From a bacterium (GTDB taxonomy: Bacteria; Actinomycetota; Acidimicrobiia; Spongiisociales; ZC4RG35): a stretch of DNA of 64,000 nt. The translations under genes were made by a program, and so were the position numbers. Below the pieces are notes generated by a model. That model saw only the letters and a program-made list of their open reading frames with translations. It did no database searches and was not told the origin of the DNA. Within the stretch, counting starts at the first letter, position 1; each line of letters begins with the position of its first letter. Location: the NCBI GenBank assembly GCA_028824015.1, contig JAPPFC010000036.1:221949-285948 (forward strand), in the 5' to 3' direction. Shown one piece after another: positions 2,929-64,000 of the stretch.

Positions 2929-5013
2929 TCAACCCAACGGCCCGAACCACCGGTCGTGGAGCTGGCGGTAGACCCCGCTCTCGATGAGTTCCAGCAGGGC
3001 CAGATTGACCTGCTCCCGGAAAGCGGCATCCTCCTGGCTCACCACGAAACCGTACTGGACCTGTTCGAAGTCGGGCCCCACCGTCGCCACCTCGCCGCCT
3101 CCCTCCCGGGAAGCGTGGAAGTGAAGGACGGGAGCATCGAACACGATCGCATCGACTTCGCCTGCCTCCAGCAGCGAATACGCCTCAACGACGTCATCCA
3201 CCAGCACGGGCCCCACCCCGATCGAGGACAGGTAGGCAGCCCCCGCCGTTTGGTAGACCGTGGCAACCCGGTGACCGGGCAAGTCGGAGGGCCCGGCGAT
3301 TTCCCCACGCAGTTCGCTCACCGCCAGCGAAGAGGCGATGGAAGCGGTGAAACTGGCGAACACCAGAGTTCCCAGGGCTATCCAGATCAAAGCGAACACT
3401 CTCCCCTTGTCGCCCCTGGCCACCTTGTCGCCATAACCCACGGTGCTCATGGTCACCACCGACCAGTAGAACGAATCCCAGATTCCCTGGCGGTAGGGCA
3501 CTGCGAAATCGGCATTGTGATGTCGTTCCAACCACCAGATCACATGGGCGGAGATCAGCACCGCCACGCCGAACACCACCAGCAACCAGGGCAGGTCCGA
3601 GGAGATGATGGCCCTCAGGAACAGCAGGATGCGGTCGCCGACGTGCCGGTCCGCTTCGCTGGGCGCCATGATGGTCAGCCCGGTGTTGAGCACCGGCAGC
3701 GAGAAGTCGACCAGCCTCTCCCTGGACTCGGTGATCGCCACACCCCCCAGGGCCACCCGGGCAACGCCCCGGTCGATGTCGTCGATCTGCTTGGCCACCG
3801 TGTCCACCGCGTAGATGTCGACCTCCATCCCCAGGCGGGCGGCCAGAAGCTGCGCCAACTCCACCTCGAAACCGCTGTAGGAGCGGTCGTCATAAATTAC
3901 GAACGGCGGAAGAATGCGTGCTGCCACCGACAGCCTGCCCCCGGCCGCCGAGGCAGCGTCGCCGGTGTCTTCCAGTCCCACCGCCTGCGGGTCCGCGGCT
4001 TGTATCCAGCCCTCTACGGTGACCTGATTGGCGTTCACCCATTCCTTGGCATGGCGGCGGATGTCTTCGGGATCCCCTTCGTCGGCCACCATCAGGGCGT
4101 TCTGAGCGGAGATGTCCTCCAGTGGTATCACCACCTGCTCCAAAAGTCGCCGGATGGAGGGATTGGCTTCCAGGAACCGGGCGTTGGCGACCACCCGTAT
4201 GTCATTGGGAGGCCAACCGACCTGGCAGGGATCGTTGGCGCATCCCGGTATTCCGGGGATAATGGTCCGGTCCAGGTAGGCAGCCTGCTCCACCGGCAAG
4301 GATGGGAAGGGCGTCTCGAGCCAGACCACGTCCCGGCCGGGCTGCAACTCGCCCACCGTCCAGTTGGGCGTCCAGGTGTAGTAGAGGACCGGTTGTCCGG
4401 ATCGATACCGATCAAAGGTCGCCCTGATCAGAGGTGAGTAGGCGCCCTGGACTTGTTCGACCGTCTCACCCAACCCATAGACGTCCAGGTGGTGATCTAT
4501 GATGGCGGCGCACCCCCACGAAGGCTCGCAACCGATCAGGTCGGCCAGTCCGTTCCCATCCCCATCGAACAGCGCGGCGATCTCCGGGGCGGCCAAGTCA
4601 CCGAGATTGGTGATCCCGTGTGCTTCGGCGGTCGCCTTATCCACGAAGTATCCCTGTAGCGCGCCATCGTCTACCTGGGTCCCCACCATTTCGACGTATT
4701 CCTCCTGAAGAAAGGCGTCCTGTGTCGGGAACCAGCCGTTTGCCCACAGGTCCACCTCACCGGCCGCCACGGCTTCGTAGAACTCGTCGTTGTCCATGGT
4801 GACAGGTCCCTCAACCCGATATCCGAGCCGCTGGATCAAGAGACGGTAGACCTCGGCCTGGAACCAGCCGGTATCCCAGGTGGCGCGAGCCATCCGCACC
4901 GGCTTTGCTTCAGCGCCGCCGTCCTCCGACTCGGCCTGTGCCATCACCGCGGCCATTGGAAAAACGAGCAGTACTGACAGTATTCCCAAGACAACTATGG
5001 AGATTCTGCGCAT
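2929..5013 (-). CDS. ProX/OpuAC glycine-betaine-binding domain fused to a GluR0-like ligand-gated potassium channel
   Basis: A 694-residue fusion. Residues 1-26 are a signal peptide. Residues 38-342 match the ProX/OpuAC quaternary-amine-binding domain, with VRMARATWDTGWFQAE, VDLWANGWFP (85-96), the Cys pair 162/168, YTWTPNW and a second Cys pair 258/263. These motifs are shared with the ProX proteins at 7065-8003 and from 62047. Residues 360-455 are the S1 lobe of an ionotropic glutamate receptor ligand domain, including ITESRERLVDFSLP; Arg431 aligns with the ligand-carboxylate arginine. A membrane helix (474-494), a pore loop with potassium filter TVGYGD (524-529) and a second helix ending SFTASIASSLAV (554-564, like SYTANLAAF of iGluRs) follow. 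Residues 565-692 are the S2 lobe with Asp626 in DAIVFDAP. The ATG at 5013 is preferred over TTG at 5040 because it starts the signal peptide. The gene is divergent from the BCCT transporter. Ligands and gating are inference. Confidence 0.9.
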   Translation of the reverse strand: MRRISIVVLGILSVLLVFPMAAVMAQAESEDGGAEAKPVRMARATWDTGWFQAEVYRLLIQRLGYRVEGPVTMDNDEFYEAVAAGEVDLWANGWFPTQDAFLQEEYVEMVGTQVDDGALQGYFVDKATAEAHGITNLGDLAAPEIAALFDGDGNGLADLIGCEPSWGCAAIIDHHLDVYGLGETVEQVQGAYSPLIRATFDRYRSGQPVLYYTWTPNWTVGELQPGRDVVWLETPFPSLPVEQAAYLDRTIIPGIPGCANDPCQVGWPPNDIRVVANARFLEANPSIRRLLEQVVIPLEDISAQNALMVADEGDPEDIRRHAKEWVNANQVTVEGWIQAADPQAVGLEDTGDAASAAGGRLSVAARILPPFVIYDDRSYSGFEVELAQLLAARLGMEVDIYAVDTVAKQIDDIDRGVARVALGGVAITESRERLVDFSLPVLNTGLTIMAPSEADRHVGDRILLFLRAIISSDLPWLLVVFGVAVLISAHVIWWLERHHNADFAVPYRQGIWDSFYWSVVTMSTVGYGDKVARGDKGRVFALIWIALGTLVFASFTASIASSLAVSELRGEIAGPSDLPGHRVATVYQTAGAAYLSSIGVGPVLVDDVVEAYSLLEAGEVDAIVFDAPVLHFHASREGGGEVATVGPDFEQVQYGFVVSQEDAAFREQVNLALLELIESGVYRQLHDRWFGPLG

Positions 5014-5095
5014 GAAAGGTGTCCGGGTGGGCTGGGCCAAAGGCTAGCAAAAGGCGACGTTTGCATGCCTTTTTCCGTCCTGAAATTCGGATGTC

Positions 5096-5112
5096 ATTCC
5101 ACTAGACGAAAC
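5096..5112. promoter_or_regulatory. Imperfect palindrome, candidate betaine operator (copy 1)
   Basis: ATTCCACTAGACGAAAC lies in the 285-base region between the channel gene (starts 5013, minus) and the BCCT gene (starts 5299, plus). It is a degenerate version of the perfect palindrome GTTCCACTAGGTGGAAC found at 58324-58340 upstream of the second proV. The two agree at 13 of 17 positions, including the whole left arm and centre TTCCACTAG. Sharing between two betaine-related promoters suggests a regulator site; function is inferred. Confidence 0.4.
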
Positions 5113-5298
5113 AAGAGAAAAGAGTCACCGTTTTTTACGACGCGCCCGCAGGTTCGTAAGTAGGGTGTTTGGGAAATGCTAACCCCCGCCGGTGCGGCAG
5201 AGGTTCAACTGGAGATCGTTCTCGGCGGTTGGTAGTGAAGAAGAGAAGACGACGGAAGGAGGCGAAAATGGTTGATCGACGAGTAGAAAGGAGTTCGT

Positions 5299-7068
5299 AT
5301 GTCTGAGAAAGAAGATCTCGATCTCACTCAGATCGCCGAGGCCTACGAGGACTGGGAAGAGGAAGAGGAACGCCGCCGCGCGGCGGCCATCCAGAATCGA
5401 CCCCAGTTCGAAGGCCTCCAGGTCGATCCTGATATCGATTTCTATCCTGAGGTGGCCGACCGGGAGCCCGGTGACAAGAACATTGTCAAGTGGGGATTCG
5501 ACATCCACCCACAGGTGACGTTCTACGCCGCAGGTTTCCTGTTGCTGTTCATCGCCTGGACTCTGTTGTTTCCGGAATCGGCCTCGGAAGTGTTCGGCGC
5601 CATTCTCACCTTTATCAACGAGAAGGTTGGTTGGCTGTACATCATTGCATTCAACATCTTCATCGGCGCCGCTCTCTACTTTGCGTTAGGCAGGTACGGC
5701 AAGATTCGACTAGGCGGTCCAGGAGCCCTTCCGGAGTTTTCCACCGGCGCCTGGTACGCAATGTTGATCTCCGCCGGTCTCGGCATCGGGTTGATGTTCT
5801 GGGGCGTCGCAGAGCCGATCTATCACCTGACGGCGCCGCCTCCCCTCTTCGACGTCGAGCCCCTTTCAGCGGGCGCGGCGAGAGGAGCGTTGGCGACTTC
5901 CTACCTCCACTGGGGGATCCATGGATGGGCGCTGTACGGCTTGGTGGCCTTGGCCTTGGGGTTCTTCGCCTACAACCGGGGCCTGCCACTGACCTTCCGC
6001 TCGGTCTTCTATCCGATTCTCGGTCCGAGGATCTACGGCGGATGGGGCAACGCCATCGACATCCTGACGGTGGTGGCCACCCTCTTCGGGCTCGCCACCT
6101 CATTGGGATTCGGCGCCGGCCAGGCTGCTGCGGGACTGCACAAGCTCTTCGGCCTTCCGGAGGGCACCGGGTTCCAGATCCTCCTGATCGCCTTCATTAC
6201 CGGACTGGCGACCATCTCGGTGGTTGCGGGTCTGGACGCCGGGGTCAAGAGGCTCAGCCAGCTCAACGTCTATCTGGCCGCAGCGTTCCTGCTGTTCGTG
6301 ATGTTGGTGGGACCGACCCTGTTGGTCCTCTCGCTGTACGTTGAGAGCATCGGCGTCTACATCCAGATATTGCCCGAGTTCTCGTTCTGGAACGCGGCAT
6401 TGATCGAGACCCAATGGCAGCAGTGGTGGACCATCTTCTACTGGGGATGGTGGATTTCCTGGTCTCCCTTCGTCGGAATGTTTATCGCCCGAATCTCCAA
6501 GGGGCGCTCGGTGCGGGAAATGATCATCGGTGTGATCGTGCTCCCCTGCCTCCTGTGCTTCCTGTGGTTCGCGGTGTTCGGCGGAGCGGCCATGAATCTG
6601 CAGATGACCGGTGAACTGGACGTCGCCACCGCGGTCAACGAAAACGTTGCCACTGCCCTGTTCGTGATGTTGGAGGCCTTCCCATGGACCTTCTTCGTCT
6701 CGATAGTCGGCATCTTGCTATTGGTTTCGTTCTTCGTCACCTCGTCTGACTCCGGATCTCTGGTCGTTGACCACCTCACCTCCGGAGGGAAGCTCGACTC
6801 GCCCAAGCCCCAGCGGGTGTTCTGGGCGTGCATGGAAGGCCTGGTCGCGTGCGTGTTGCTGTTGGGAGGTGGCCTTTCGGCGCTCCAAACGGCCGCCGTG
6901 GCCACCGGGCTGCCATTCCTGTTCGTGCTTCTCATCATGCTGTGGAGCCTCAAGAAGGCCTTCGACGAAGAACTCGACCTCTTGGAGAGTCACTACGACG
7001 AAGCCATCTTCAAGGCCCAGCACAGCGGCTTGCTTGAGAGGCTGGGAAGAGGAGGCGACCCGTCATGA
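5299..7068 (+). CDS. BCCT-family betaine/carnitine/choline transporter
   Basis: A 589-residue transporter of the betaine-choline-carnitine transporter family. A charged cytoplasmic N-terminus of about 75 residues precedes roughly 12 membrane helices. The family signature is clear: FYWGWWISWSPFVGMFIARISKGR, with the Trp-rich substrate box, and HWGIHGWALYG earlier. BCCT carriers move quaternary amines by sodium or proton symport, or by exchange. Start ATG has a strong ribosome binding site (GAAAGGAG). Its stop codon overlaps the start of the ProX lipoprotein by 4 bases, so the two are translated together. The pair is divergent from the ProX-channel fusion. Exact substrate and coupling ion are not evident. 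Confidence 0.95.
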   Translation: MSEKEDLDLTQIAEAYEDWEEEEERRRAAAIQNRPQFEGLQVDPDIDFYPEVADREPGDKNIVKWGFDIHPQVTFYAAGFLLLFIAWTLLFPESASEVFGAILTFINEKVGWLYIIAFNIFIGAALYFALGRYGKIRLGGPGALPEFSTGAWYAMLISAGLGIGLMFWGVAEPIYHLTAPPPLFDVEPLSAGAARGALATSYLHWGIHGWALYGLVALALGFFAYNRGLPLTFRSVFYPILGPRIYGGWGNAIDILTVVATLFGLATSLGFGAGQAAAGLHKLFGLPEGTGFQILLIAFITGLATISVVAGLDAGVKRLSQLNVYLAAAFLLFVMLVGPTLLVLSLYVESIGVYIQILPEFSFWNAALIETQWQQWWTIFYWGWWISWSPFVGMFIARISKGRSVREMIIGVIVLPCLLCFLWFAVFGGAAMNLQMTGELDVATAVNENVATALFVMLEAFPWTFFVSIVGILLLVSFFVTSSDSGSLVVDHLTSGGKLDSPKPQRVFWACMEGLVACVLLLGGGLSALQTAAVATGLPFLFVLLIMLWSLKKAFDEELDLLESHYDEAIFKAQHSGLLERLGRGGDPS

Positions 7069-8003
7069 CCAAGAGATCGAATGTATTGATCGCCGCTCTC
7101 GCGGCGTTCGTGCTGGTGCTCTCCGCCTGCGCCACCGACGGCCAGGACCGGCCGGTGACGATGGCCCGGGCCGATTGGTCCTCCGGTCACATGCAGGCCG
7201 CCATCTACGCTCAGTTGCTCGAGGAACTCGGACACGAGGTCACCGATCCCGCGTTGGCAGAGCTGCAGCCCTTCTCCTTCTATCCGGCCCTGGCCGCCGG
7301 ACAGTACGACCTGTGGGTCAACGGCTGGTTCCCGAACCACGACATCTTCCTTGAGGGGGAGAACGTGACGGGCCAAGCGGTGGACCTGCCAATCGAACCC
7401 ATCGGCTATGAAGTAGCCAAGGGGGGAGTTGAGGGCTGGATGGTCGACAAGGCCACGGCCGACCGGCTGGGAATCAGGTCCATGAATGACGTAGCCGCCA
7501 ATGCCGGCGCCTTCGACAGCAACGGCAACGGCAAGGCCGACCTGATCGGATGCAACGCCGGTTGGGGATGCAACACCTGGATCAACGATCTGATCGCCGA
7601 CGAGAGTTGGGGCGGCAGCGTTGAGCAGATCTCCGGTGACTACGACGCCCTGGTTCGGGGCGTCATCGACCGGGTGAACGCCGGTGAGTCGGTGCTGTTC
7701 TACGCCTATACGCCCAACTGGACCGCCGACTCCCTGGTCGACGGGGACAATGCGGTGTGGGTGTACCAGCACGGCGTCAACGACATCCGGGCGGTGGCCA
7801 ACACCGACTTCTTGGATGACAACCCGGATATCCGTCGCCTGCTCGAGGTAGTGGCGATTCCGCTGAGCGACATCGCCGCTCAGAATGCCAGGATGGCCGC
7901 AGCGGACGAGTACTCCGACGCCGATGTCCAAGCTGACGCCGAGGCCTGGATCGCCGCCAACCGCGACCGTGTCGACAGTTGGCTGGCAATCGCCCGCGGC
8001 TGA
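7065..8003 (+). CDS. ProX/OpuAC-type quaternary amine-binding lipoprotein
   Basis: A 312-residue lipoprotein: signal peptide with lipobox LSAC (Cys22), then a type II periplasmic binding domain. Ligand-site and fold motifs are VTMARADWSSGHMQAA, YDLWVNGWFPNHD, the paired cysteines in IGCNAGWGCNTW and YTPNWTADSL. These are the same landmarks as in the binding domain of the channel fusion and the tandem protein from 62047. There is no ABC permease or ATPase next to it. Instead it is coupled by an ATGA overlap to the BCCT transporter. It may deliver ligand to one of the ABC systems elsewhere, or act with the BCCT carrier; neither is proven. Confidence 0.9.
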   Translation: MTKRSNVLIAALAAFVLVLSACATDGQDRPVTMARADWSSGHMQAAIYAQLLEELGHEVTDPALAELQPFSFYPALAAGQYDLWVNGWFPNHDIFLEGENVTGQAVDLPIEPIGYEVAKGGVEGWMVDKATADRLGIRSMNDVAANAGAFDSNGNGKADLIGCNAGWGCNTWINDLIADESWGGSVEQISGDYDALVRGVIDRVNAGESVLFYAYTPNWTADSLVDGDNAVWVYQHGVNDIRAVANTDFLDDNPDIRRLLEVVAIPLSDIAAQNARMAAADEYSDADVQADAEAWIAANRDRVDSWLAIARG

Positions 8004-16959: not shown

Positions 16960-16983
16960 GAGAAACTGGACTTGTCAACGAAA

Positions 16984-17071
16984 GCTTCCTTCGCCGGCAT
17001 TATCCGGATCAGGTGCTAACGGTCGGAGGAACTCATCCTCCCTCTCAGCCCGGTCTTACCGAGCTCCCGTG
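16984..17071 (-). promoter_or_regulatory. TPP (thiamine pyrophosphate) riboswitch
   Basis: Read on the minus strand, the leader of thiB contains the conserved THI-element core: GGGAGCTC at the 5' side, the pyrimidine-sensing loop GGGCTGAGAGGG (17044-17050 is GGCTGAG), and the pyrophosphate-sensing part CACCTGATCCGGATAATGCCGGCGAAGGAAG. The universally conserved CTGAGA and CCTGATC..GATAATGCC..CG.AGGAA segments match the known consensus very closely. It sits between the nucS stop and thiB, and the downstream RBS hairpin suggests translational control of thiamine uptake. Confidence 0.95.
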
Positions 17072-17083
17072 TTTGCTCTGTCG

Positions 17084-54039: not shown

Positions 54040-56541
54040 ATGGACTTCCCCACCAGCGCCCATGTGATAGTTATCGGAGCAGGCATTGCAGGAAACTCGG
54101 TGGTAGGACACCTGGCCGAAATGGGTTGGAAGAACATAGTCCAGATAGACAAAGGACCCCTCCCCAACCCCGGCGGTTCCACCGGGCACGCTTCCAACTT
54201 CTGCTTCCCGGTCGATCACTCCAAAGAGATGACCATGCTCACCCTGGATTCCACCAGGCAGTACGCGGAGATGGATGTCATGGTGGTCTCCGGAGGCATC
54301 GAGGTGGCTCGCGCCCCCGAGCGCATGGAAGAACTCCGCCGCCGCATGACGTCGGCCACCGCCTGGGGCGTGGAGTCCCACCTCATCTCGCCCGCCGAGG
54401 TGGAGGAACTGGTGCCCTTCATCAACCGGGACATCATTCTGGGAGGCTTCTACAGTCCCGGGGTCACCGTGGTCGACTCGCTCCGGGCCGGAACCATCAT
54501 GCGGGAGAGGGCGCAGGCTCTCGACGCCCTGACCGTCCTGCCCAACACCGAGGTGCTGAGCATGGAAGTCAGAAACGGCGCCATCGCGGCGGTCGTGACC
54601 GACAAGGGCCGGATCGAGACCGAGCATCTGGTCATCGCCTGCGGAGTGTGGAGTCCCCGCATGGCGGAGATGGCCGGCGCCACCATCCCTCTCACCCCCG
54701 CCGTCCACCAGATGATCGACGTCGGTCCGATACCGGTCCTGCAGGCCACCAATTCGGAGATCGGCTATCCGATCGTGCGGGACATGGACACCTACATGTA
54801 CGAGCGTCAGACAGCCGGGTCGATGGAGGTCGGCTCCTACGCCCACCGTCCGATCTTCCACCATCCGAACGACATCCCGTCCCTGGGAGAGTCCCTCCTC
54901 TCCCCCACCGAGTTGCCCTTCACCGACGAGGACTTCGACCTGCAGATGGAGCACGCCCTGGAGTTGATGCCCGAGATCCTGTCGGCGGCGGAGATCCGCT
55001 ATGCCATCAACGGCCTCCTGTCCCTCACCCCCGACGCCATGCCTCTCCTCGGGGAGACCGTTGAGGTCCGGAACCTCTGGTCGGCGGCGGCGGTCTGGAT
55101 CAAGGAGGGCCCCGGAGTGGGGAAGATGATCGCCCAGTGGATGACCCAGGGGTATCCCGAGATCGACCCCCACTCCTCCGACATCGCTCGTTTCTACAGA
55201 TACGCCCGGAACAACCACCACATCTACGCCCGGTGCTCGGAGCACTTCAACAAGACCTACGGCATCGTTCACCCCCGCGAGCAGTGGGAGTCCAACCGGA
55301 GGGTCCGCACGGTCCCCGCCTATCCGCGGCAGGTGGAACTGGGAGCGGTCTTCTACGAGGCGGGAGGCTGGGAGAGACCCCAGTGGTACGAGGTGAACGC
55401 TCCCCTGGTGGAGAAGTACGGGGTGGAGGGCCGCGAACATGAATGGGACGCCCGTTGGTGGTCGCCGATCATCAACGCCGAGCACCTCGCCATGCGCGAG
55501 AGCGTGGGGATGGTGGACCTGACCGCCTTCGCCATCTTCGACATCACCGGACCCGGCGTGGTCGACTACATCCAGAAGATGGCCGTCAACCAGTGCGATG
55601 TGCGGGTGGGACGCGCCGTCTACACCCCTCTCCTAACCGAGACCGGAGGTTTCCGGGCCGATCTCACCATCCTCCGTCTCGGCGAGCACCACTACCGGGT
55701 GATCAGCGGTGGAGGCGACGGCGCCCGGGACCGCTACTGGTTCCGCAAGCACCTGCCCGACGACGGGTCCGTGACCTTCGTCGACAACACCTCAGGGGTG
55801 TCGACGGTGGGTCTGTGGGGGCCTAATGCCCGGAAAGTCATCGAGAGTCTCACCTCCGACGACGTTTCCCACCAGGGCTTTCCCTACGGATCGGTCAGGG
55901 AGGTCAACCTGAGGGGAATCGACACCCTCATGCTTCGCATCTCCTACGTCGGAGAGTTGGGATGGGAGATCTCGGTCTCCATGGAACAGGGTCTCCAGCT
56001 GTGGGACATGCTGTGGGAAGCAGGCCAGGAGTGGGGGGTCGTCCCGGTGGGCATCGGCGTGTACGGAACGACCGGGCGCCTCGAGAAGGGCTACCGCCTG
56101 ATGGGCGCCGAGTTGGAGTCCGAGTACAACCCGGTGGAAGCAGGACTGGCTCGCCCGAAGGTCAAGAAGGCCGACTTCATCGGTAAGGGACCCTACCTGC
56201 AGGCGCGCGCCGAAGACCCGGCCACGATCCTGTGCACCCTCACCGTGGAAGACCACACCTCGGCGTCGGGCATCGAGCGCTACATGGGCGGCAACGAGCC
56301 GATCCTCACCCCCGACGGGCAACGCATCACCGACAGCCACGGCCGTCCCTCCTATGTCACCAGCGCGGGGAACGGACCCTCCGTGGGCAAATACCTCCTG
56401 TTGGCCTACCTGCCGCCCGAGCACGCGGTGGAGGGCCGGGAGTTGGCGGTGATGTACATGAACGAGTTGTATCCGGTCAAGGTGGCCGTGGCGGGCAGCA
56501 CCCCGCTGTTCGACCCCGCCAACGAACGGATGAGGCGCTGA
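54040..56541 (+). CDS. Dimethylglycine/sarcosine dehydrogenase-like flavoprotein with folate-binding GcvT domain
   Basis: An 833-residue two-part enzyme. Residues 1-400 are a DAO-type flavin oxidoreductase: VIVIGAGIAGNSVVGHLAEMGW (GxGxxG at 13-18). NPGGSTGHASNF follows, whose His50 aligns with the covalent flavin histidine of dimethylglycine dehydrogenase. LSLTPDAMPLLGE also belongs to this part. Residues about 430-740 are a GcvT aminomethyltransferase domain (REHEWDARWWSPIINAEHLAMRESVGMVDLTAF) and the rest its C-terminal barrel. These enzymes oxidise N-methylglycines and pass the one-carbon unit to tetrahydrofolate, giving electrons to ETF. Ribosome binding site AGGGAG. It is divergent from the corrinoid operon and followed directly by ETF genes. 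Confidence 0.92.
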   Translation: MDFPTSAHVIVIGAGIAGNSVVGHLAEMGWKNIVQIDKGPLPNPGGSTGHASNFCFPVDHSKEMTMLTLDSTRQYAEMDVMVVSGGIEVARAPERMEELRRRMTSATAWGVESHLISPAEVEELVPFINRDIILGGFYSPGVTVVDSLRAGTIMRERAQALDALTVLPNTEVLSMEVRNGAIAAVVTDKGRIETEHLVIACGVWSPRMAEMAGATIPLTPAVHQMIDVGPIPVLQATNSEIGYPIVRDMDTYMYERQTAGSMEVGSYAHRPIFHHPNDIPSLGESLLSPTELPFTDEDFDLQMEHALELMPEILSAAEIRYAINGLLSLTPDAMPLLGETVEVRNLWSAAAVWIKEGPGVGKMIAQWMTQGYPEIDPHSSDIARFYRYARNNHHIYARCSEHFNKTYGIVHPREQWESNRRVRTVPAYPRQVELGAVFYEAGGWERPQWYEVNAPLVEKYGVEGREHEWDARWWSPIINAEHLAMRESVGMVDLTAFAIFDITGPGVVDYIQKMAVNQCDVRVGRAVYTPLLTETGGFRADLTILRLGEHHYRVISGGGDGARDRYWFRKHLPDDGSVTFVDNTSGVSTVGLWGPNARKVIESLTSDDVSHQGFPYGSVREVNLRGIDTLMLRISYVGELGWEISVSMEQGLQLWDMLWEAGQEWGVVPVGIGVYGTTGRLEKGYRLMGAELESEYNPVEAGLARPKVKKADFIGKGPYLQARAEDPATILCTLTVEDHTSASGIERYMGGNEPILTPDGQRITDSHGRPSYVTSAGNGPSVGKYLLLAYLPPEHAVEGRELAVMYMNELYPVKVAVAGSTPLFDPANERMRR

Positions 56542-56542
56542 G

Positions 56543-57304
56543 GTGAACATCCTCGTCTGTGTGAAACGGGTGCCCGCACCCGGCGCACGGATCGTCCTCA
56601 CCGACGACTCCCAGGGGATCGACACCCGGCACCTCGGGTTCACCACCAGCCCGCACGAGGAGTGCGCGGTGGAAGCGGCCGTGCAGCTGAAGGAAAAGCA
56701 CGGCGGCACCACCACCGTTCTCACCCTGGGGCCGCCGGAGGCGACCGAGCAACTCCGCTACTCGGTCTCGGTCGGAGCCGACAAGGTGGTGCTGGTACCG
56801 GCCGACACCACCGAGTTGGACCCCCAGGCGACGGCCGCGGCCCTGGTCGAGGCCATCGAGGAACTGGAGACCGAAACCCCCTTCGACCTGATCCTCTTCG
56901 GGAACGAGTCGGCGGACTCGGGGGGGTACCAGGTGGGGATCAGGGTGGCCCGGAAACTGGGCCGTCCGGTCATAAGCGGCTTGAAGGGGATAGAGATCGA
57001 TGGCGACCGGATGGTGGGCCGCCGCGAGACCGACGAGGGCTTCGAGGTATACCGCCTTCCGATGCCTGCGGTGGCCGCGGCCAAAGAGGGCATCACCCTG
57101 CCCCGCTATCCCACGCTTCCCGGCCGCCTCAAGTCCCGGCGGGCGGAGATCCAGGAGGTCCCGGCGGGGTTGAGGACGGGAGGCCAGGAGATGGTCAGCC
57201 TGCTGAAACCGGCCGAAGAAGTCACCGAGACCGTCATCCTCGGACACGGCGCCGAAGCCGCTCCGGGTGTGGTGCGCCTCCTGGAGGAGGTGGGCCTCCT
57301 GTGA
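56543..57304 (+). CDS. etfB: Electron transfer flavoprotein subunit beta
   Basis: A 253-residue ETF beta subunit. Characteristic segments are NILVCVKRVPAPGARI, SPHEECAVEAAVQLKEKHGG, LGPPEATEQLRYSVSVGADKVVLV and FDLILFGNESADSGGYQVGIRVARKLGRPVIS, followed by RLPMPAVAAAKEGITLPRYPTLPGRLKSRRAEI. It accepts electrons from the dehydrogenase just upstream and perhaps from the acyl-CoA dehydrogenases in the window. GTG start directly after the dehydrogenase stop; its end overlaps ETF alpha by 4 bases. Confidence 0.96.
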   Translation: MNILVCVKRVPAPGARIVLTDDSQGIDTRHLGFTTSPHEECAVEAAVQLKEKHGGTTTVLTLGPPEATEQLRYSVSVGADKVVLVPADTTELDPQATAAALVEAIEELETETPFDLILFGNESADSGGYQVGIRVARKLGRPVISGLKGIEIDGDRMVGRRETDEGFEVYRLPMPAVAAAKEGITLPRYPTLPGRLKSRRAEIQEVPAGLRTGGQEMVSLLKPAEEVTETVILGHGAEAAPGVVRLLEEVGLL

Positions 57305-58272
57305 GCCGGATCCTGGTGTTCGTGGACAACGACCGGGGGACCCTCTCGCCTTCGGCTCTCGAGGCCCTCACCCCCGCCCGTGTCCTGGCCGAGGGCCTGG
57401 ACGCATCCCTGGAGTTGGCGACGGTCGGCGAAGGAGGCCGGGCGGCCCTCGAGCCGGTGGGCCTTCCGGGACACGTGATGTCCCATCCGGTCCTCACCGA
57501 CTACGCCCCCGAGGCCTACGGAGAAGCGTTGGCCCAGTTGGCCTCCGAAAAGAACGCCTCGGTGGTCATCTCTCTGGGGGATGACCGCGGCGCCGAGGTG
57601 ATGGCTCATGCCGCCGCCGTCCTGGACCAACCGCTGGTGGCCAACGTCACCGAGATCGTGGACACCGGGGGGCCTGACGGCGCCTGGGAGGTGATCCGGG
57701 TGAGATGGGGCGGGAGCCTCCTCGAGAGAGCCCGGCTCAGATCAACCTTAAAACTCCTGACCATTGCCCCGCATACCTTCCCGGCCCCCGATTCGGCCGG
57801 GGACGCCGCCGGTTCGCTCACCACCTTCGTCCCTGAAATACCCGATGCCCTGGCCCGCACCAGGGTGGTGGAGAGGGTCAAGCTGGCCGAGGGACTCACC
57901 CTGGCCACCGCCCCGGTGGTGGTGAGCGGCGGGAGAGGGGTGGGAAGCGCCGAGAACTTCGCAATTCTCGAGGAGTTGGCGGAGTTGCTGGGAGGAGTGG
58001 TGGGGTGTTCTCGCGTGGCGACCAACAACGGCTGGCGGCCCCACTCCGACCAGGTCGGACAGACCGGCACCCGAATAGCCCCCGACCTCTACATTGCCTG
58101 CGGCATCTCCGGCGCCGTCCAGCATTGGGTGGGCTGCATGGCCTCCAAACAGATCCTGGCGATCAACACCGACCCGGAGGCGCCCCTGGTGACCAAGGCC
58201 GACTATGCGGTCATCGGCGACCTCCACGAAATCCTGGCCGCGGTGATCGCCGAGATCAAGGCTCGCGGCTAG
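57301..58272 (+). CDS. etfA: Electron transfer flavoprotein subunit alpha
   Basis: A 323-residue ETF alpha subunit. The N-terminal domain is SRILVFVDNDRGTLSPSALEAL; the C-terminal FAD domain has VVVSGGRGVGSAENFAILEELAELLGGVVGCSRVATNNGWRPHSDQVGQTGTRIAPDLYIACGISGAVQHWVGC, the classic alpha-subunit signature, and ILAINTDPEAPLVTKADYAVIGDLHEILAAVI. No ETF:quinone oxidoreductase gene is next to it, so onward transfer must rely on one elsewhere. Confidence 0.96.
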   Translation: MSRILVFVDNDRGTLSPSALEALTPARVLAEGLDASLELATVGEGGRAALEPVGLPGHVMSHPVLTDYAPEAYGEALAQLASEKNASVVISLGDDRGAEVMAHAAAVLDQPLVANVTEIVDTGGPDGAWEVIRVRWGGSLLERARLRSTLKLLTIAPHTFPAPDSAGDAAGSLTTFVPEIPDALARTRVVERVKLAEGLTLATAPVVVSGGRGVGSAENFAILEELAELLGGVVGCSRVATNNGWRPHSDQVGQTGTRIAPDLYIACGISGAVQHWVGCMASKQILAINTDPEAPLVTKADYAVIGDLHEILAAVIAEIKARG

Positions 58273-58323
58273 GCGTCACACGCCTGCGGGGGCCCGCGCC
58301 CGTGGCTTGAACCCCCGAACGGT

Positions 58324-58340
58324 GTTCCACTAGGTGGAAC
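58324..58340. promoter_or_regulatory. Perfect palindrome GTTCCACTAGGTGGAAC, candidate betaine operator (copy 2)
   Basis: GTTCCAC-TAG-GTGGAAC is a perfect inverted repeat of 7-base arms around TAG, 52 bases past the etfA stop. A degenerate copy (ATTCCACTAGACGAAAC) is at 5096-5112 between the ProX-channel gene and the BCCT transporter gene. Size and symmetry fit a dimeric repressor or activator site. It is too small for a strong terminator without a T-run, although weak termination after etfA cannot be excluded. Confidence 0.5.
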
Positions 58341-58390
58341 TATTTAGTCCGGGGTTTGCCCTCCCTTATAGTTGACGTTCTGTTAACTTA

Positions 58391-58419
58391 ACTAGTAACC
58401 AGATGACCGTCACTAGTAA
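58391..58419. promoter_or_regulatory. Direct repeats ACTAGTAA two helical turns apart
   Basis: ACTAGTAA occurs at 58391-58398 and again at 58412-58419, 21 bases apart start to start. Equal-face spacing of two DNA turns is typical of tandem binding by response-regulator or AraC-type activators. They lie between the palindrome at 58324 and the proV start. Function is inferred from spacing only. Confidence 0.35.
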
Positions 58420-58603
58420 ACGCATATGAGCCTCGCAGAACTTGTCGCCGATTCGGCAGACTCAAACCGGTGTATTCAGCTCTGGAATTGCCTTGGGCAT
58501 GAAGAACAAGTAGCCCCTATTACAACGCGCGGTCAGCCTCAACCTTTAGAGTTCGGTTTACACAATCAATGTTGTCGGACTGGGAGCGGCCGGAAAGGGC
58601 GAT

Positions 58604-59823
<1,220 letters not shown>

Positions 59824-59827
<4 letters not shown>

Positions 59828-61962
59828 GGGCCGCAGGACTGATACTCGCCCAGGCCGAGGAGGCGGAAGCCCCCCTGCGTTTCTGGGAAAACGCCATACT
59901 CGACGAGTGGGAGATCCCCTTCGGGTTCTGGATGGACGAGATGGTGTCGTGGGTGGTCGCCAACATGGAAACCGTGTTGGACATCATCAAGTGGCCCTTC
60001 TCGTTCCTGTTCCGCAACTTTGTCGTCAGCCCCGAGTACCACCCATGGTGGGAACTGACCGACATGCCTTGGCTTCTGGTGTGCGCCATCGTGCTGGTGG
60101 TCGCCACCCTCACCCGCAATCTCAGGGTGGGAGTAGGCCTGGCCGTGATGCTGGCGCTCTGCGGGTTGTTGGGCAACGAGTTCTGGGAGGAGACGGTCGT
60201 CACCATCGGCCTGGTGGTGGTCTCGGTGGTGATCTGCGCGATCATCGGCATTCCCCTCGGCGTGCTGTGCGGGCGCGTCGACGGGGTGTGGAACGCGGTG
60301 CGACCGGCTCTCGACGCCATGCAGGTGGTCCACGCCTTCGTCTACATCATTCCGTTCATCTTCTTCTTCGGACTGGGACCGGAGCCGGCCACCATGGTGA
60401 CGATGGTGTTCGCCATACCTCCTCTGATACGGCTCACCAACCTGGGGATCCGCCAGGTTCCCGCCGACGTGGTGGAAGCCAGCCGCGCCTACGGGGCCTC
60501 GGAGTGGAGGGTGCTGCTGGATGTGCAGATCCCCCTGGCTCGCCCCGCCATAATGACCGGGCTCAACCAGACTCTGCTGCTCTCCATCTCGATGATCGGC
60601 ATCGCGGCCATCATGGGCGCCAGCGGACTGGGCCTACTGGTGTTCCGGGCGGTCATCAACATCGACACTCCCCTCTCGACTTCGGCGGGCCTGGCCCTGT
60701 TCATCGTGGCGGTGGTGCTGGACCGCATCTCCCAGACCGAGTCCGGCGAGGGCGCCAATCTCTTCACCCGCATCTACCGGGCCTGGGCGCACCGGCGCGA
60801 TCCCGAGGCCCTGCTGGCCGGATCGGGCGGCGGCGATCCGGACGCCAACGAAGGCAAACCCGCCCCGGCCGGCGCCTCGGAACGCACCTGTGCGCTGGTG
60901 GCCCTGGTCGGCTCGTTGGTCGGGATCGTCTCGGTGTTCCTGCCCTGGAGCCTGGACTCGGGGCTGGTCTCCGGTTACAGCCGCGCCGCCGACCTTGACC
61001 TGGCGGGAGTGAGCGCCAACGGACTGGCGGCCGAGGGAGGAAGCTATTTCGGCATCGCCGTCCTGGCGATGAGCCTGCTGTTGCTGGGAGCGGCCGTCAC
61101 GACCCTGACCCGCCCGGGCCGGGGGGCACGATGGTTCGGCGCCGACGGGGCGCTTTTGTTCGCCGGGGGCGCGTTGATCGCCGCAATTTCCTACCTGTGG
61201 ATCGAACCCTCTCCCGAGGCTGTCTCGCACCAGGACGGTATCGGGACCTGGGCGGCCCTGGCGGGTGGCGTGATTGCGGTGATCGGAGCGGCGCTCTGGA
61301 TCCGCATCGCCCCCTACAGCCCGCTCCGGCCGCTTCGGATCAACATCTCGTTCAGCCGGATTGCCATAGCGCTGGTGATCGTTGGCTTGCTGGGGGTGGC
61401 AGGCCTGTCACCGTGGTTTGTGGACGCCCGGGCCCAGTCGGTGATCACCCCCGAACTGCAGGCCGAGATCGACGAACTCGAGAAGGAGGCCCGGGAGGAC
61501 ACCACCAAAGCGGGACAAAACGCCATATCAATCGCCACCCTGGTGGCCGAAGCGCAGCGCAAGAATCCCATTGCAGCCGACGGCTTCACGGCGAACGGAC
61601 CCGGCCTGGGACGCCTGGTCCTGTGGTTGGGAGTGGTGGGCGCCCTGTTCAGCCTGCCGGCCGCCGGGGTGTTCGGCGGCGGCGAGCGGCGTCGCTGGAT
61701 GTGGAGCGTGGCGGTCTCGGCTGTCGGGGTGGGAGTCCTGCTTGCGTCCGGAGGCTGGATCGCCTCGCTGGTGCGCGCCTCCGATCCCAATTTCGTCAGC
61801 GGGTTTGGTTCATTCCTATGCCTGCTGGCAGGGTTCTTTCTCTTCATCTCCTCGCGGGGTGTCCTGAAAGAGTTCCGTCGGTCCATGGTCTACGCGGGCG
61901 ACTCCGGGCTGATGGCCCAACGCGGGGGCCCGCAGGCCTCCGCGGCCACAGAAGCGACTTGA
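59824..61962 (+). CDS. proW: ProW-like ABC permease with an extra C-terminal membrane domain
   Basis: A 712-residue protein. Residues 1 to about 320 are a normal ProW permease with GVLCGRVDGVWNAVRPALDAMQVVHAFVYIIPF, PPLIRLTNLGIRQVPADVVEASRAYGASEWRVLLDVQIPLARP (EAA loop) and LNQTLLLSISMIGIAAIMGASGLG. After a linker (about 330-360) comes an unfamiliar domain with seven or so hydrophobic segments. A predicted extracytoplasmic coiled coil lies at about 540-565 (ITPELQAEIDELEKEARED). This tail is not part of known ProW proteins and could sense osmotic or membrane state. The gene is followed 84 bases later by the tandem binding protein. Confidence 0.9.
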
Positions 61963-62046
61963 TTCACACACAGGAGGAATACACCAAAGGAGACCTCTGA
62001 CAGACGGCAACAAGCCAAGATGGAAGGAACAGAAAAGGAGCACTAC

Positions 62047-64000
62047 ATGAGAAAAAGACACATCAAGCATCTGATCGCCGTCCTTTCGGTGCTGGCGCTC
62101 TTGGCGGCGGCATGCGGAGACGGGGACGATGCAGAAGTGACGGAGGAGCCCGCGGCTACCACAGCCGCCCCGGCCCCGACCGACGACGACATGGACGACG
62201 ACATGGACGAGCCGGACGACATGGACGACGACATGGACGACATGGACGACGACATGGACGAGCCGGAGGAACCCACCGACATGGCCGACGATATGGCCCT
62301 TCCCGGTGAAGGTGTGTCGGTGACGATGGCTCGTGCTAACTGGTCGACTGGCTATATGCAGGCGGCGATCGTCGCTGCTCTGTTGGGCGAGTTGGGTTAT
62401 GACGTGTCAGATCCGGCCGACCTCGAGTTGGCGCCGTCCAACGCTTTCGTGGCGATGGCCAACGGCGAGTTCGACTTCTGGGTCAACTCGTGGTTCCCCA
62501 ACCACAACCAGTTCCTGGCCGGTGAGATGCCCGACGGTTCGTTGGTCTCAGAGCACGTGACCACCCTGGGTTATGAGATGCCCCGTGCAGGCGTGCAGGG
62601 TCTGATCACCAACAAGGCCTTCGCCGAGGCGAACGGGGTTACCACCCTCGACGCCCTGTTGAACGACCCCGCCCAGTTCGCCGCCTACGAGGCAGCCGAT
62701 GTCTCGCCGGGTGACGGCATCCTCCAGATAATGGGTTGTCCGGAAGGATGGGGTTGCCGGGTCAACATCGACGGGTGGATCGCCAACGCTGGTTGGGACA
62801 ACGTCGAGCAGTTCGACATCGGTGGTTATGACGCCATGATCGCCGATGCGATCGCACGTGACGCCGCCGGTGAGCCGTACCTGGTCTACACCTGGGCGCC
62901 GAGCCACTACGTGGGCGACCTGCGCCCCGGCGACAACGCCGTGTGGCTCTCCATCCACGACGATCCGATCTCCGACACCCAGATCGAAGGTCCGAAGTCG
63001 ATCGGTAACCAGTGCACCACCGACCCCTGCAACCTGGGTTGGGACGCGGCCGACATTCGCGCCACCGGGAACAACGACTTCCTGGCCGCCAACCCGGCGG
63101 TTGCCCGGTTGCTCGAGTTGTTCACGATCAACCCGGTTGACGTGACCCTCCAGAACGTCACCTACAGCCTCGGCGAGAACACCGAGGACGACGTCAAGCG
63201 GCACGCCGCCGCATGGATCGAAGCCAACCGCGACCAGGTCGACGCCTGGCTCGAGAAGGCCAAGCAGCCGATCAGCATGACTCCCGGTGATGGTGTGTCG
63301 GTGACGATGGCCCGTGCCAACTGGTCGACCGGTTATATGCAGGCGGCGATCGTCGCTGCTCTGTTGGGCGAGTTGGGTTATGACGTGTCAGATCCGGCCG
63401 ACCTCGAGTTGGCGCCGTCCAACGCTTTCGTGGCGATGGCCAACGGCGAGTTCGACTTCTGGGTCAACTCGTGGTTCCCCAACCACAACCAGTTCCTGGC
63501 CGGTGAGATGCCCGACGGTTCGTTGGTCTCAGAGCACGTGACCACCCTCGGCTTCGAAATGGCCCGGGCAGGCGTGCAGGGGCTGATCACCAACAAGGCA
63601 TTCGCCGAGGCGAACGGGGTCACCACCCTCGACGCTCTGGTGAACGATCCCGCCCAGTTCGCCGCCTACGAGGCAGCTGACGTGTCGCCTGGCGACGGCG
63701 TCCTCCAGATAATGGGTTGTCCGGAGGGATGGGGTTGCCGGGTCAACATCGACGGGTGGATCGCCAATGCCGGTTGGGACAACGTCGAGCAGTTCGACAT
63801 CGGCGGATATGACGCCATGATCGCCGATGCGATCGCCCGCGACGCCGCCGGTGAGCCGTACCTGGTCTACACATGGGCGCCGAGCCACTACGTTGGCGAC
63901 CTCCGCCCCGGTGACAACTCGGTGTGGATGTCCATCCACGACGATCCGATCTCCGACACCCAGATCGAAGGTCCCAAGTCGATCGGTAACCAGTGCACCA
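62047..64000 (+). CDS. proX: ProX/OpuAC-type binding lipoprotein with tandem duplicated binding domains (partial)
   Basis: The reading frame is open from ATG 62047 to the window end, so the 3' end is missing (651 codons seen). A lipoprotein signal peptide (lipobox LAAAC, Cys23) is followed by a spacer rich in Asp and Met (repeats of DDDMDDDM, about residues 50-85). Then comes a full OpuAC domain: SVTMARANWSTGYMQAA, FDFWVNSWFPNHNQF, MGCPEGWGCRVNID, YTWAPSHYVGDL, IGNQCTTDPC. A second, almost identical domain starts at about 63291. The two are joined by a short linker (EKAKQPISMTPGDG). Ribosome binding site AAAAGGAG. It belongs with the permease and ATPase upstream. Confidence 0.93.
   Translation, partial: MRKRHIKHLIAVLSVLALLAAACGDGDDAEVTEEPAATTAAPAPTDDDMDDDMDEPDDMDDDMDDMDDDMDEPEEPTDMADDMALPGEGVSVTMARANWSTGYMQAAIVAALLGELGYDVSDPADLELAPSNAFVAMANGEFDFWVNSWFPNHNQFLAGEMPDGSLVSEHVTTLGYEMPRAGVQGLITNKAFAEANGVTTLDALLNDPAQFAAYEAADVSPGDGILQIMGCPEGWGCRVNIDGWIANAGWDNVEQFDIGGYDAMIADAIARDAAGEPYLVYTWAPSHYVGDLRPGDNAVWLSIHDDPISDTQIEGPKSIGNQCTTDPCNLGWDAADIRATGNNDFLAANPAVARLLELFTINPVDVTLQNVTYSLGENTEDDVKRHAAAWIEANRDQVDAWLEKAKQPISMTPGDGVSVTMARANWSTGYMQAAIVAALLGELGYDVSDPADLELAPSNAFVAMANGEFDFWVNSWFPNHNQFLAGEMPDGSLVSEHVTTLGFEMARAGVQGLITNKAFAEANGVTTLDALVNDPAQFAAYEAADVSPGDGVLQIMGCPEGWGCRVNIDGWIANAGWDNVEQFDIGGYDAMIADAIARDAAGEPYLVYTWAPSHYVGDLRPGDNSVWMSIHDDPISDTQIEGPKSIGNQCT
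62301..64000 (+). repeat. Near-identical 981-bp tandem direct repeat within the proX-like gene
   Basis: Unit 1 runs from TCCCGGTGA at 62301 to 63281; unit 2 begins at 63282 with the same TCCCGGTGA and continues beyond the window (719 bases seen). The offset is exactly 981 bases (327 codons), keeping the frame. Long stretches, such as 62371-62560 against 63352-63541, look almost base-for-base identical. Scattered changes cause LLNDP/LVNDP, GYEMPRAG/GFEMARAG and NAVWLS/NSVWMS. This points to recent duplication or gene conversion. Confidence 0.92.

What the first reader, a model, noticed from the sequence alone, without database searches (positions are those of the whole stretch)
2929..5013. A glycine-betaine-type binding domain fused to a GluR0-like potassium channel
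One frame encodes a signal peptide, a complete ProX/OpuAC domain, the S1 lobe, two membrane helices around a TVGYGD filter, and the S2 lobe. The iGluR landmarks are intact: Arg431 in TESRERLVDFS, Asp626 in DAIVFDAP, and SFTASIASSLAV after the pore. Known prokaryotic GluR0 channels have no extra N-terminal domain, and animal iGluRs carry a LIVBP-type (type I) one. A quaternary-amine type II binding domain in that place would be a new receptor architecture. It could let potassium flow be gated or modulated by two ligands, an amino acid and a betaine-like osmolyte. The divergent BCCT transporter supports an osmolyte role.
Basis: partly seen in the sequence, partly recalled or inferred. Interest (0 to 1): 0.93.

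Follow-up and report, generated by a model that had tools for sequence, protein, structure and literature searches.

The report
Betaine-sensor domain fused to potassium channel
A family of bacterial proteins joins a glycine-betaine-type binding domain to a glutamate-receptor-like potassium channel in one chain, in Actinobacteria mostly beside genes for a betaine-family transporter, and is predicted to let potassium flow respond to an outside osmoprotectant as well as to an amino acid.

Summary
In detail: window 2929-5013, minus strand, is one intact 694-codon frame (signal peptide, ProX/OpuAC clamshell, S1, M1-P-M2 with TVGYGD, S2). It is not a mis-join: the 120 best homologues listed in each of two searches are all fused the same way, in Actinobacteria, Desulfobacterota and cyanobacteria, and the channel halves of sampled fusions fall in one group (99/98). 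The three ProX cage tryptophans are kept in 121 of 121 and 58 of 58 aligned rows, with Phe at the third in five distant ones. AlphaFold (pLDDT 88) gives ProX plus GluR0-core folds. In 35 of 37 actinobacterial loci the gene lies beside a BCCT transporter and a soluble ProX-like protein, in three orientations; 0 of 9 intact unfused channels do. That BCCT gene is the genome's only one. NCBI's ProX model fits the protein and hides the channel. Passages read say prokaryotic glutamate receptors lack an N-terminal domain. I propose a K+ channel modulated by a betaine-type ligand and working with BCCT uptake. Binding, gating and flux direction are untested; six searches of an open-licence library found no description.

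The parts
2929..5013 (-). OpuAC-GluR0 fusion channel, 694 aa
   Evidence: one open frame; Pfam; AlphaFold model pLDDT 88.2
4933..5013 (-). N-terminal signal peptide, about residues 1-27
   Evidence: hydrophobic helix read from the sequence and model; no signal-peptide program was run
3991..4905 (-). ProX/OpuAC clamshell, residues 37-341, with W94, W166, W214 and C162/C168
3940..3990 (-). linker between the two clamshells, residues 342-358
   Evidence: stretch 340-361 is 22 residues in 113 and 23 in 8 of 121 rows; variable sequence
3646..3939 (-). S1 lobe of the amino-acid binding core, residues 359-456, Arg431
   Evidence: 2pyy alignment; Arg431 in 121 of 121
3523..3594 (-). first membrane helix, residues 474-497
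   Evidence: model helix; Ion_trans_2
3427..3444 (-). selectivity filter TVGYGD, residues 524-529
   Evidence: 121 of 121 rows
3307..3411 (-). second membrane helix with SFTASIASSLAV, residues 535-569
   Evidence: model helix; sequence
2941..3303 (-). S2 lobe, residues 571-691, Asp626
   Evidence: 2pyy alignment; Asp626 in 119 of 121
5299..7068 (+). BCCT-family transporter, 589 aa, divergent from the channel
   Evidence: PF02028 616.6 bits; only BCCT gene of the genome
7065..8003 (+). soluble ProX-like binding protein, 312 aa, overlapping the BCCT gene by 4 bases
   Evidence: OpuAC 1.5e-36; 1r9l 8.5e-36

Best explanation
This gene encodes a two-clamshell receptor-channel in which a ProX-type domain that would bind glycine betaine or a similar quaternary amine sits in front of a GluR0-type potassium channel, and betaine binding likely opens or modulates potassium flow while the neighbouring BCCT transporter takes the osmolyte up. 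Shown here: one intact frame; the same fusion in three phyla; kept cage tryptophans, amino-acid Arg and K+ filter; purifying selection on both halves; linkage to BCCT and a soluble ProX-like protein. Inferred: both clamshells face outside, as in GluR0; four subunits form the pore; closure of the upper clamshell shifts the lower one, as N-terminal domains do in animal receptors; betaine, perhaps together with an amino acid, then opens the K+ path. The likely use is the swap of K+ for betaine after osmotic upshift: K+ leaves as betaine enters and balances charge brought in by Na+-coupled BCCT uptake.
For: Architecture. Fused in 120 of 120 listed homologues in each of two searches. E. coli ProX ligand residues W65, W140, W188 (PMC10087775 Table 2) match W94, W166, W214, kept in 121 of 121 and 58 of 58. 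Arg431 121 of 121, Asp626 119 of 121, TVGYGD 121 of 121. Selection. Neighbours: 35 of 37 actinobacterial and 2 of 3 Desulfobacterota fusion loci beside BCCT and an OpuAC protein against 0 of 9 intact unfused channels. GluR0 topology, K+ uptake in an E. coli mutant and the K+-then-solute sequence: PMC13099474, abstract and Discussion.
Against: No binding, current or expression data. The His that holds betaine's carboxylate in ProX is Gln in this protein and in 17 of 121 rows. The third cage Trp is Phe in L068, L069, L088-L090 and Arg in the split L133. Three cyanobacterial fusions and L132 have no BCCT nearby. The BCCT is nearest, among solved structures, to a trimethylamine transporter (514 bits against 304 for BetP) that does not bind betaine (PMC11708041 passages), and scores below NCBI's cut-off for betaine BCCT (540 against 650). 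pTM 0.54 leaves the angle between clamshells open. BCCT-SBP pairs also occur without a channel nearby (L085; L038).
Confidence: 0.55

Rival explanations
1. The OpuAC part is only a tethered scavenger that concentrates betaine near the BCCT; the channel is governed by its amino-acid domain alone and merely supplies compensating K+ flux.
For: Constant BCCT linkage; unfused GluR0-type channels exist without any upper domain.
Against: A soluble ProX-like protein is already encoded beside it in 35 of 37 loci; the stretch between the clamshells has nearly constant length, 22 or 23 residues in 121 of 121 rows, which a loose tether would not need.
Confidence: 0.2
2. It is a nutrient sensor for another methylated amine or sulfonium compound (trimethylamine, carnitine, choline, DMSP), serving catabolism rather than osmoregulation.
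For: BCCT nearest to the trimethylamine transporter; a dimethylglycine-dehydrogenase-like gene, an ETF gene and a ProV/ProW/ProX set lie in the same window; similar oxidoreductase hits lie near L133.
Against: The cage matches ProX residue by residue, and the upper domain passes NCBI's ProX cut-off (345 against 215 bits) but not the choline-binding one (32.6 against 379); the Met105 of the trimethylamine transporter is Leu here (read by eye).
Confidence: 0.2
3. Two genes joined by an assembly or sequencing error.
For: In L133 the halves are separate overlapping ORFs near a run of seven A.
Against: 120 of 120 listed homologues in each of two searches are fused, from several sources and assemblies.
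Confidence: 0.01

Closest known systems
GluR0 of Synechocystis (1ii5) and Nostoc GluR0 core (2pyy)
   Different: an extra N-terminal OpuAC clamshell; side-chain pocket changed (Ala at the GluA2 655 place in 107 of 121 rows); BCCT neighbours
E. coli ProX (1r9l/1r9q)
   Different: part of a channel chain; no ProV/ProW next to it (they lie 54 kb away with their own ProX); His69 place is Gln here
Animal ionotropic glutamate receptors with LIVBP-type N-terminal domain
   Same: two stacked clamshells in one chain over a pore-loop channel
   Different: upper clamshell is OpuAC (type II), not LIVBP (type I; origin as told in PMC12551409, passages); K+ filter; no M4 or C-terminal domain seen
GlnPQ SBD1-SBD2 tandem (6h30)
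   Same: two substrate-binding domains in tandem; sixth Foldseek row, 13% identity, rmsd 21 A as one body
   Different: feeds an ABC importer, no ion pore (recalled)

Membership tests
Prokaryotic ionotropic glutamate receptor (GluR0 type) | S1 and S2 lobes flanking two membrane helices and a pore loop | tested here: met
Prokaryotic ionotropic glutamate receptor (GluR0 type) | K+ filter and the S1 Arg and S2 Asp (PMC2950845) | tested here: met
   TVGYGD and Arg431 121 of 121, Asp626 119 of 121
Prokaryotic ionotropic glutamate receptor (GluR0 type) | ligand-gated K+ current | not testable with these tools
   needs electrophysiology
OpuAC/ProX quaternary-amine binding domain | OpuAC fold | tested here: met
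OpuAC/ProX quaternary-amine binding domain | aromatic cage W65, W140, W188 and carboxylate partner H69 | tested here: inconclusive
   three Trp kept; H69 place is Gln in this protein, His in 104 of 121 rows
ProX subunit of a ProVWX ABC importer (the automatic name) | encoded with ProV ATPase and ProW permease, no membrane part of its own | tested here: not met
   neighbours are MsrA-like, BCCT and SBP genes; chain ends in a channel
Animal-type iGluR with LIVBP N-terminal domain | type I (LIVBP) upper domain | tested here: not met
   upper domain is OpuAC
BCCT carrier of quaternary amines (neighbour gene) | aromatic residues W146, W151, Y154, W325, W326, W329 of TmaT (PMC11708041) | tested here: met
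   all six matched in the alignment, counted by eye

The most novel reading that the evidence does not exclude
Bacteria built the stacked two-clamshell glutamate-receptor plan on their own, with a betaine-binding type II clamshell on top: a widespread coincidence detector that opens a K+ path only when an osmoprotectant and an amino acid are both outside, hard-wired to a BCCT uptake operon.
Probability: 0.4. Interest if true: 0.92.

Novelty: new variant of a known kind. Interest (0 to 1): 0.82.

Why it matters
The accounts read here hold that prokaryotic glutamate receptors lack an N-terminal domain and that the animal one came from a LIVBP-type protein. A large bacterial group with a different clamshell in the same place is an independent case of the same plan, so how an upper domain controls a lower one becomes testable in a simple K+ channel. 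It would tie K+ and betaine, two classic osmolytes, together in one molecule. It also shows a blind spot of automatic naming: where names were shown for such proteins they were ProX or other ABC binding-protein names.

Tried and rejected
Assembly fusion: rejected, with one split relative told. Plain ProX of an ABC importer: rejected by neighbours and the channel half. RNA element or sigma-70 site between channel and BCCT: Rfam at gathering thresholds found only a TPP riboswitch elsewhere in the window; no promoter-like site in 4900-5400; the spacer is partly conserved among six close relatives without a clear motif. Naming the amino-acid ligand: the 655 place points away from glutamate in the window's group, the 732 place (Tyr throughout) towards it, so left open. 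BCCT substrate: not decided. First AlphaFold run on 18 close relatives was poor (pLDDT 57.8) and not used; the second with 116 rows was. A 729-residue ORF in L064 with an apparent N-terminal extension was set aside because the extension overlaps the upstream gene.

Rows dropped: one search left out L071, L073, L074, L076 (same contigs as L015, L013, L016, L028), the fragment L032, the broken L091 and the long L064 ORF; L029, cut by its contig end, had no usable channel half. One search left out those four repeats, L032 and 13 near-identical loci; its row L029_7974, labelled a BCCT-linked SBP by my script, is a fusion cut by the contig end, and I read the tree with that correction. One search used a sample: 13 actinobacterial fusions, 22 other fusions, 26 unfused. 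P0201 and P0171 count as fused there although only a remnant of OpuAC is left or present. L091, a broken channel without an attached OpuAC but beside BCCT and SBP, is in neither the 37 nor the 9. One search scored only the three best candidates in most genomes. The nine unfused loci have unequal flanks (L081 and L083 are short contigs); L105 and L120-L130 have about 1.5 kb and were not used for the neighbour count.

Full report

NOT AN ARTEFACT. The best 120 of 740 homologues (one is the window's own protein) and the best 120 of 1899 hits to a distant homologue (one is the query P0208) carry both halves in order, 120 of 120 each (checked; OpuAC nearly whole in 120 and 118). Whole-gene dN/dS against five relatives is 0.129-0.187; OpuAC part 0.105-0.144, S1 0.058-0.249, pore 0.039-0.113, S2 0.114-0.256; the signal peptide (0.36-0.57) and the 17-codon linker (0.15-1.69) are looser. 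One relative breaks the pattern: in L133 the halves are two overlapping ORFs in different frames near a run of seven A, and its third cage place reads Arg; it may be decaying or mis-sequenced.

DISTRIBUTION AND ORIGIN. The named-genome scan gave 27 fusion loci, L007-L033, labelled Acidimicrobiia, Acidimicrobiaceae or only 'bacterium'; 25 are full length, L029 is cut by its contig end and L032 is a fragment. Fusions were found in 3 of 291 genomes of the class of a Desulfobacter record (one of them the split L133) and in 3 of 242 genomes of the class of a Symploca cyanobacterium. Some source names say Desulfobacterales or Deltaproteobacteria. The channel halves of 35 sampled fusions fall on one side of a branch and 26 unfused channels on the other (99/98); a narrower tree agrees (35 against 10, 100/100). 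The plainest reading is one old fusion followed by spread; the trees are unrooted, so this is inferred. The fused OpuAC domains group apart from the BCCT-linked soluble proteins (with one mislabelled row corrected). GluR0-type channels without the upper domain are common in the same classes; of 120 best homologues of one such channel, 117 had no OpuAC match.

THE TWO POCKETS. PMC10087775 Table 2 (section read) gives E. coli ProX ligand residues W65, H69, W140, G141, C142, W188. The alignment puts W94, Q98, W166, G167, C168, W214 there. The three Trp, C162 and C168 are kept in 121 of 121 actinobacterial rows (the window's protein is in there twice) and in 58 of 58 other fusions in A2, which are 47-51% identical to the window's protein. 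In five distant actinobacterial fusions (L068, L069, L088-L090) the W214 place is Phe; the cyanobacterial and the two intact Desulfobacterota fusions have all three Trp; P0171 has lost most of the second OpuAC lobe and its first cage place is Ile. The carboxylate His is Gln in this protein and in 17 of 121 rows. In the lower pocket Arg431 is invariant and Asp626 is kept in 119 of 121. The place of GluA2 Thr655 is Ala in 107 of 121 actinobacterial rows, Thr in 51 of 58 other fusions and in 29 of 31 unfused channels; the place of 653 is Lys or Arg in 58 of 58 other fusions but Gly in 22 of 31 unfused; the place of 732 is Tyr in every row counted (one search counts it as position 654). PMC12226733 (passages) ties Thr655 and Tyr732 to glutamate and a hydrophobic 655 to glycine or D-serine in animal receptors; the mapping of GluA2 numbers onto this protein is mine, through 2pyy. 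So the backbone site is kept while the side-chain pocket has moved, and I do not name the ligand.

NEIGHBOURS. In the window the channel is divergent from a BCCT gene whose end overlaps, by 4 bases, a soluble ProX-like gene. The three genes occur together in 25 of 27 loci (misses: L022, a 5.6 kb contig, and L032, a fragment), in six further loci (four others there repeat earlier contigs) and in three distant actinobacterial loci. With the window this makes 35 of 37: 27 divergent, 3 in one direction (L017, L023, L026), 5 convergent (L068, L069, L088-L090). These genomes are related, so the 35 are not independent, but the change of orientation without loss of the association speaks for joint function. 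In Desulfobacterota L131 and L133 have BCCT, an OpuAC protein of another type (23-24% identity to the fused domain) and the channel in a row; L132 and three cyanobacterial loci have no BCCT in the flanks held. Unfused channels: 0 of 9 intact actinobacterial loci and none at L064. L091 has BCCT and SBP beside a broken channel. The neighbour is the only BCCT match in this genome. BCCT plus SBP without a channel nearby also occurs (L085; L038, a 6 kb contig).

HOW IT LIKELY WORKS. Shown: architecture, cage, amino-acid backbone site, K+ filter, selection, linkage. Inferred: outside orientation (GluR0 topology, PMC13099474, abstract and Discussion read), tetramer, quaternary-amine binding, coupling between clamshells, and K+ release during betaine uptake. 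That paper tells of the shift from K+ glutamate to compatible solutes after upshift and suggests that released glutamate may open GluR0. A betaine clamshell on top would let the cell time K+ flow to betaine supply, and K+ efflux would balance charge brought in by Na+-coupled BCCT uptake (BetP-type coupling; passages of PMC11708041; coupling of this BCCT is untested). The nearly constant stretch between the clamshells (22 residues in 113 and 23 in 8 of 121 rows) fits mechanical coupling.

WHAT IS KNOWN. PMC2950845 (parts 1-3 of 4 read) describes 22 prokaryotic receptor channels; its printed domain list names no OpuAC. PMC6385376 says Synechocystis GluR0 lacks the N-terminal domain and PMC12551409 says so of prokaryotic receptors generally (passages). 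Searches that could have found the fusion: GluR0 with glycine betaine, 0 papers; five terms joining receptor, betaine, channel and binding protein, 0 papers; none of the 15 papers listed holds 'OpuAC domain'; the papers listed do not describe it in titles or abstract starts. Only open-licence papers are held, so a description elsewhere is possible. NCBIfam's ProX equivalog passes its cut-off on this protein (345 against 215 bits), which would explain names such as 'ABC transporter substrate-binding protein ProX'.

VERDICT. A real, widespread and, as far as these searches reach, undescribed receptor-channel architecture; a new variant of the GluR0 kind. The mechanism is a proposal, not a result.

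Noticed in passing
window 54040-64000 +: A dimethylglycine-dehydrogenase-like oxidoreductase (DAO, FAO_M, GCV_T), an ETF gene, ProV- and ProW-like genes and a chain with two OpuAC domains in tandem that runs off the window; looks like betaine import and breakdown.
   Followed up: partly
window 5299-8003 +; L085; L038: A BCCT gene overlapping or next to a soluble OpuAC-type binding protein, also without the channel; could mean a BCCT that takes substrate from a binding protein.
   Followed up: partly
L133 7926-10084 +: Desulfobacterota relative in which the OpuAC half and the channel half are two overlapping ORFs in different frames, third cage place Arg.
   Followed up: partly
L091 6584-7435 -: Broken channel copy (283 aa) without attached OpuAC, still beside BCCT and SBP.
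   Followed up: no
P0171 (606 aa, unnamed source): Fusion whose OpuAC domain lacks most of its second lobe and reads Ile at the first cage Trp; perhaps a lost betaine site.
   Followed up: no
window 16969-17080 -: TPP riboswitch (68.2 bits, gathering 54.3).
   Followed up: no
G000:C34 9-722 (L004): A further OpuAC-type reading frame at a contig edge of the same genome, 41% identical to the fused domain.
   Followed up: no
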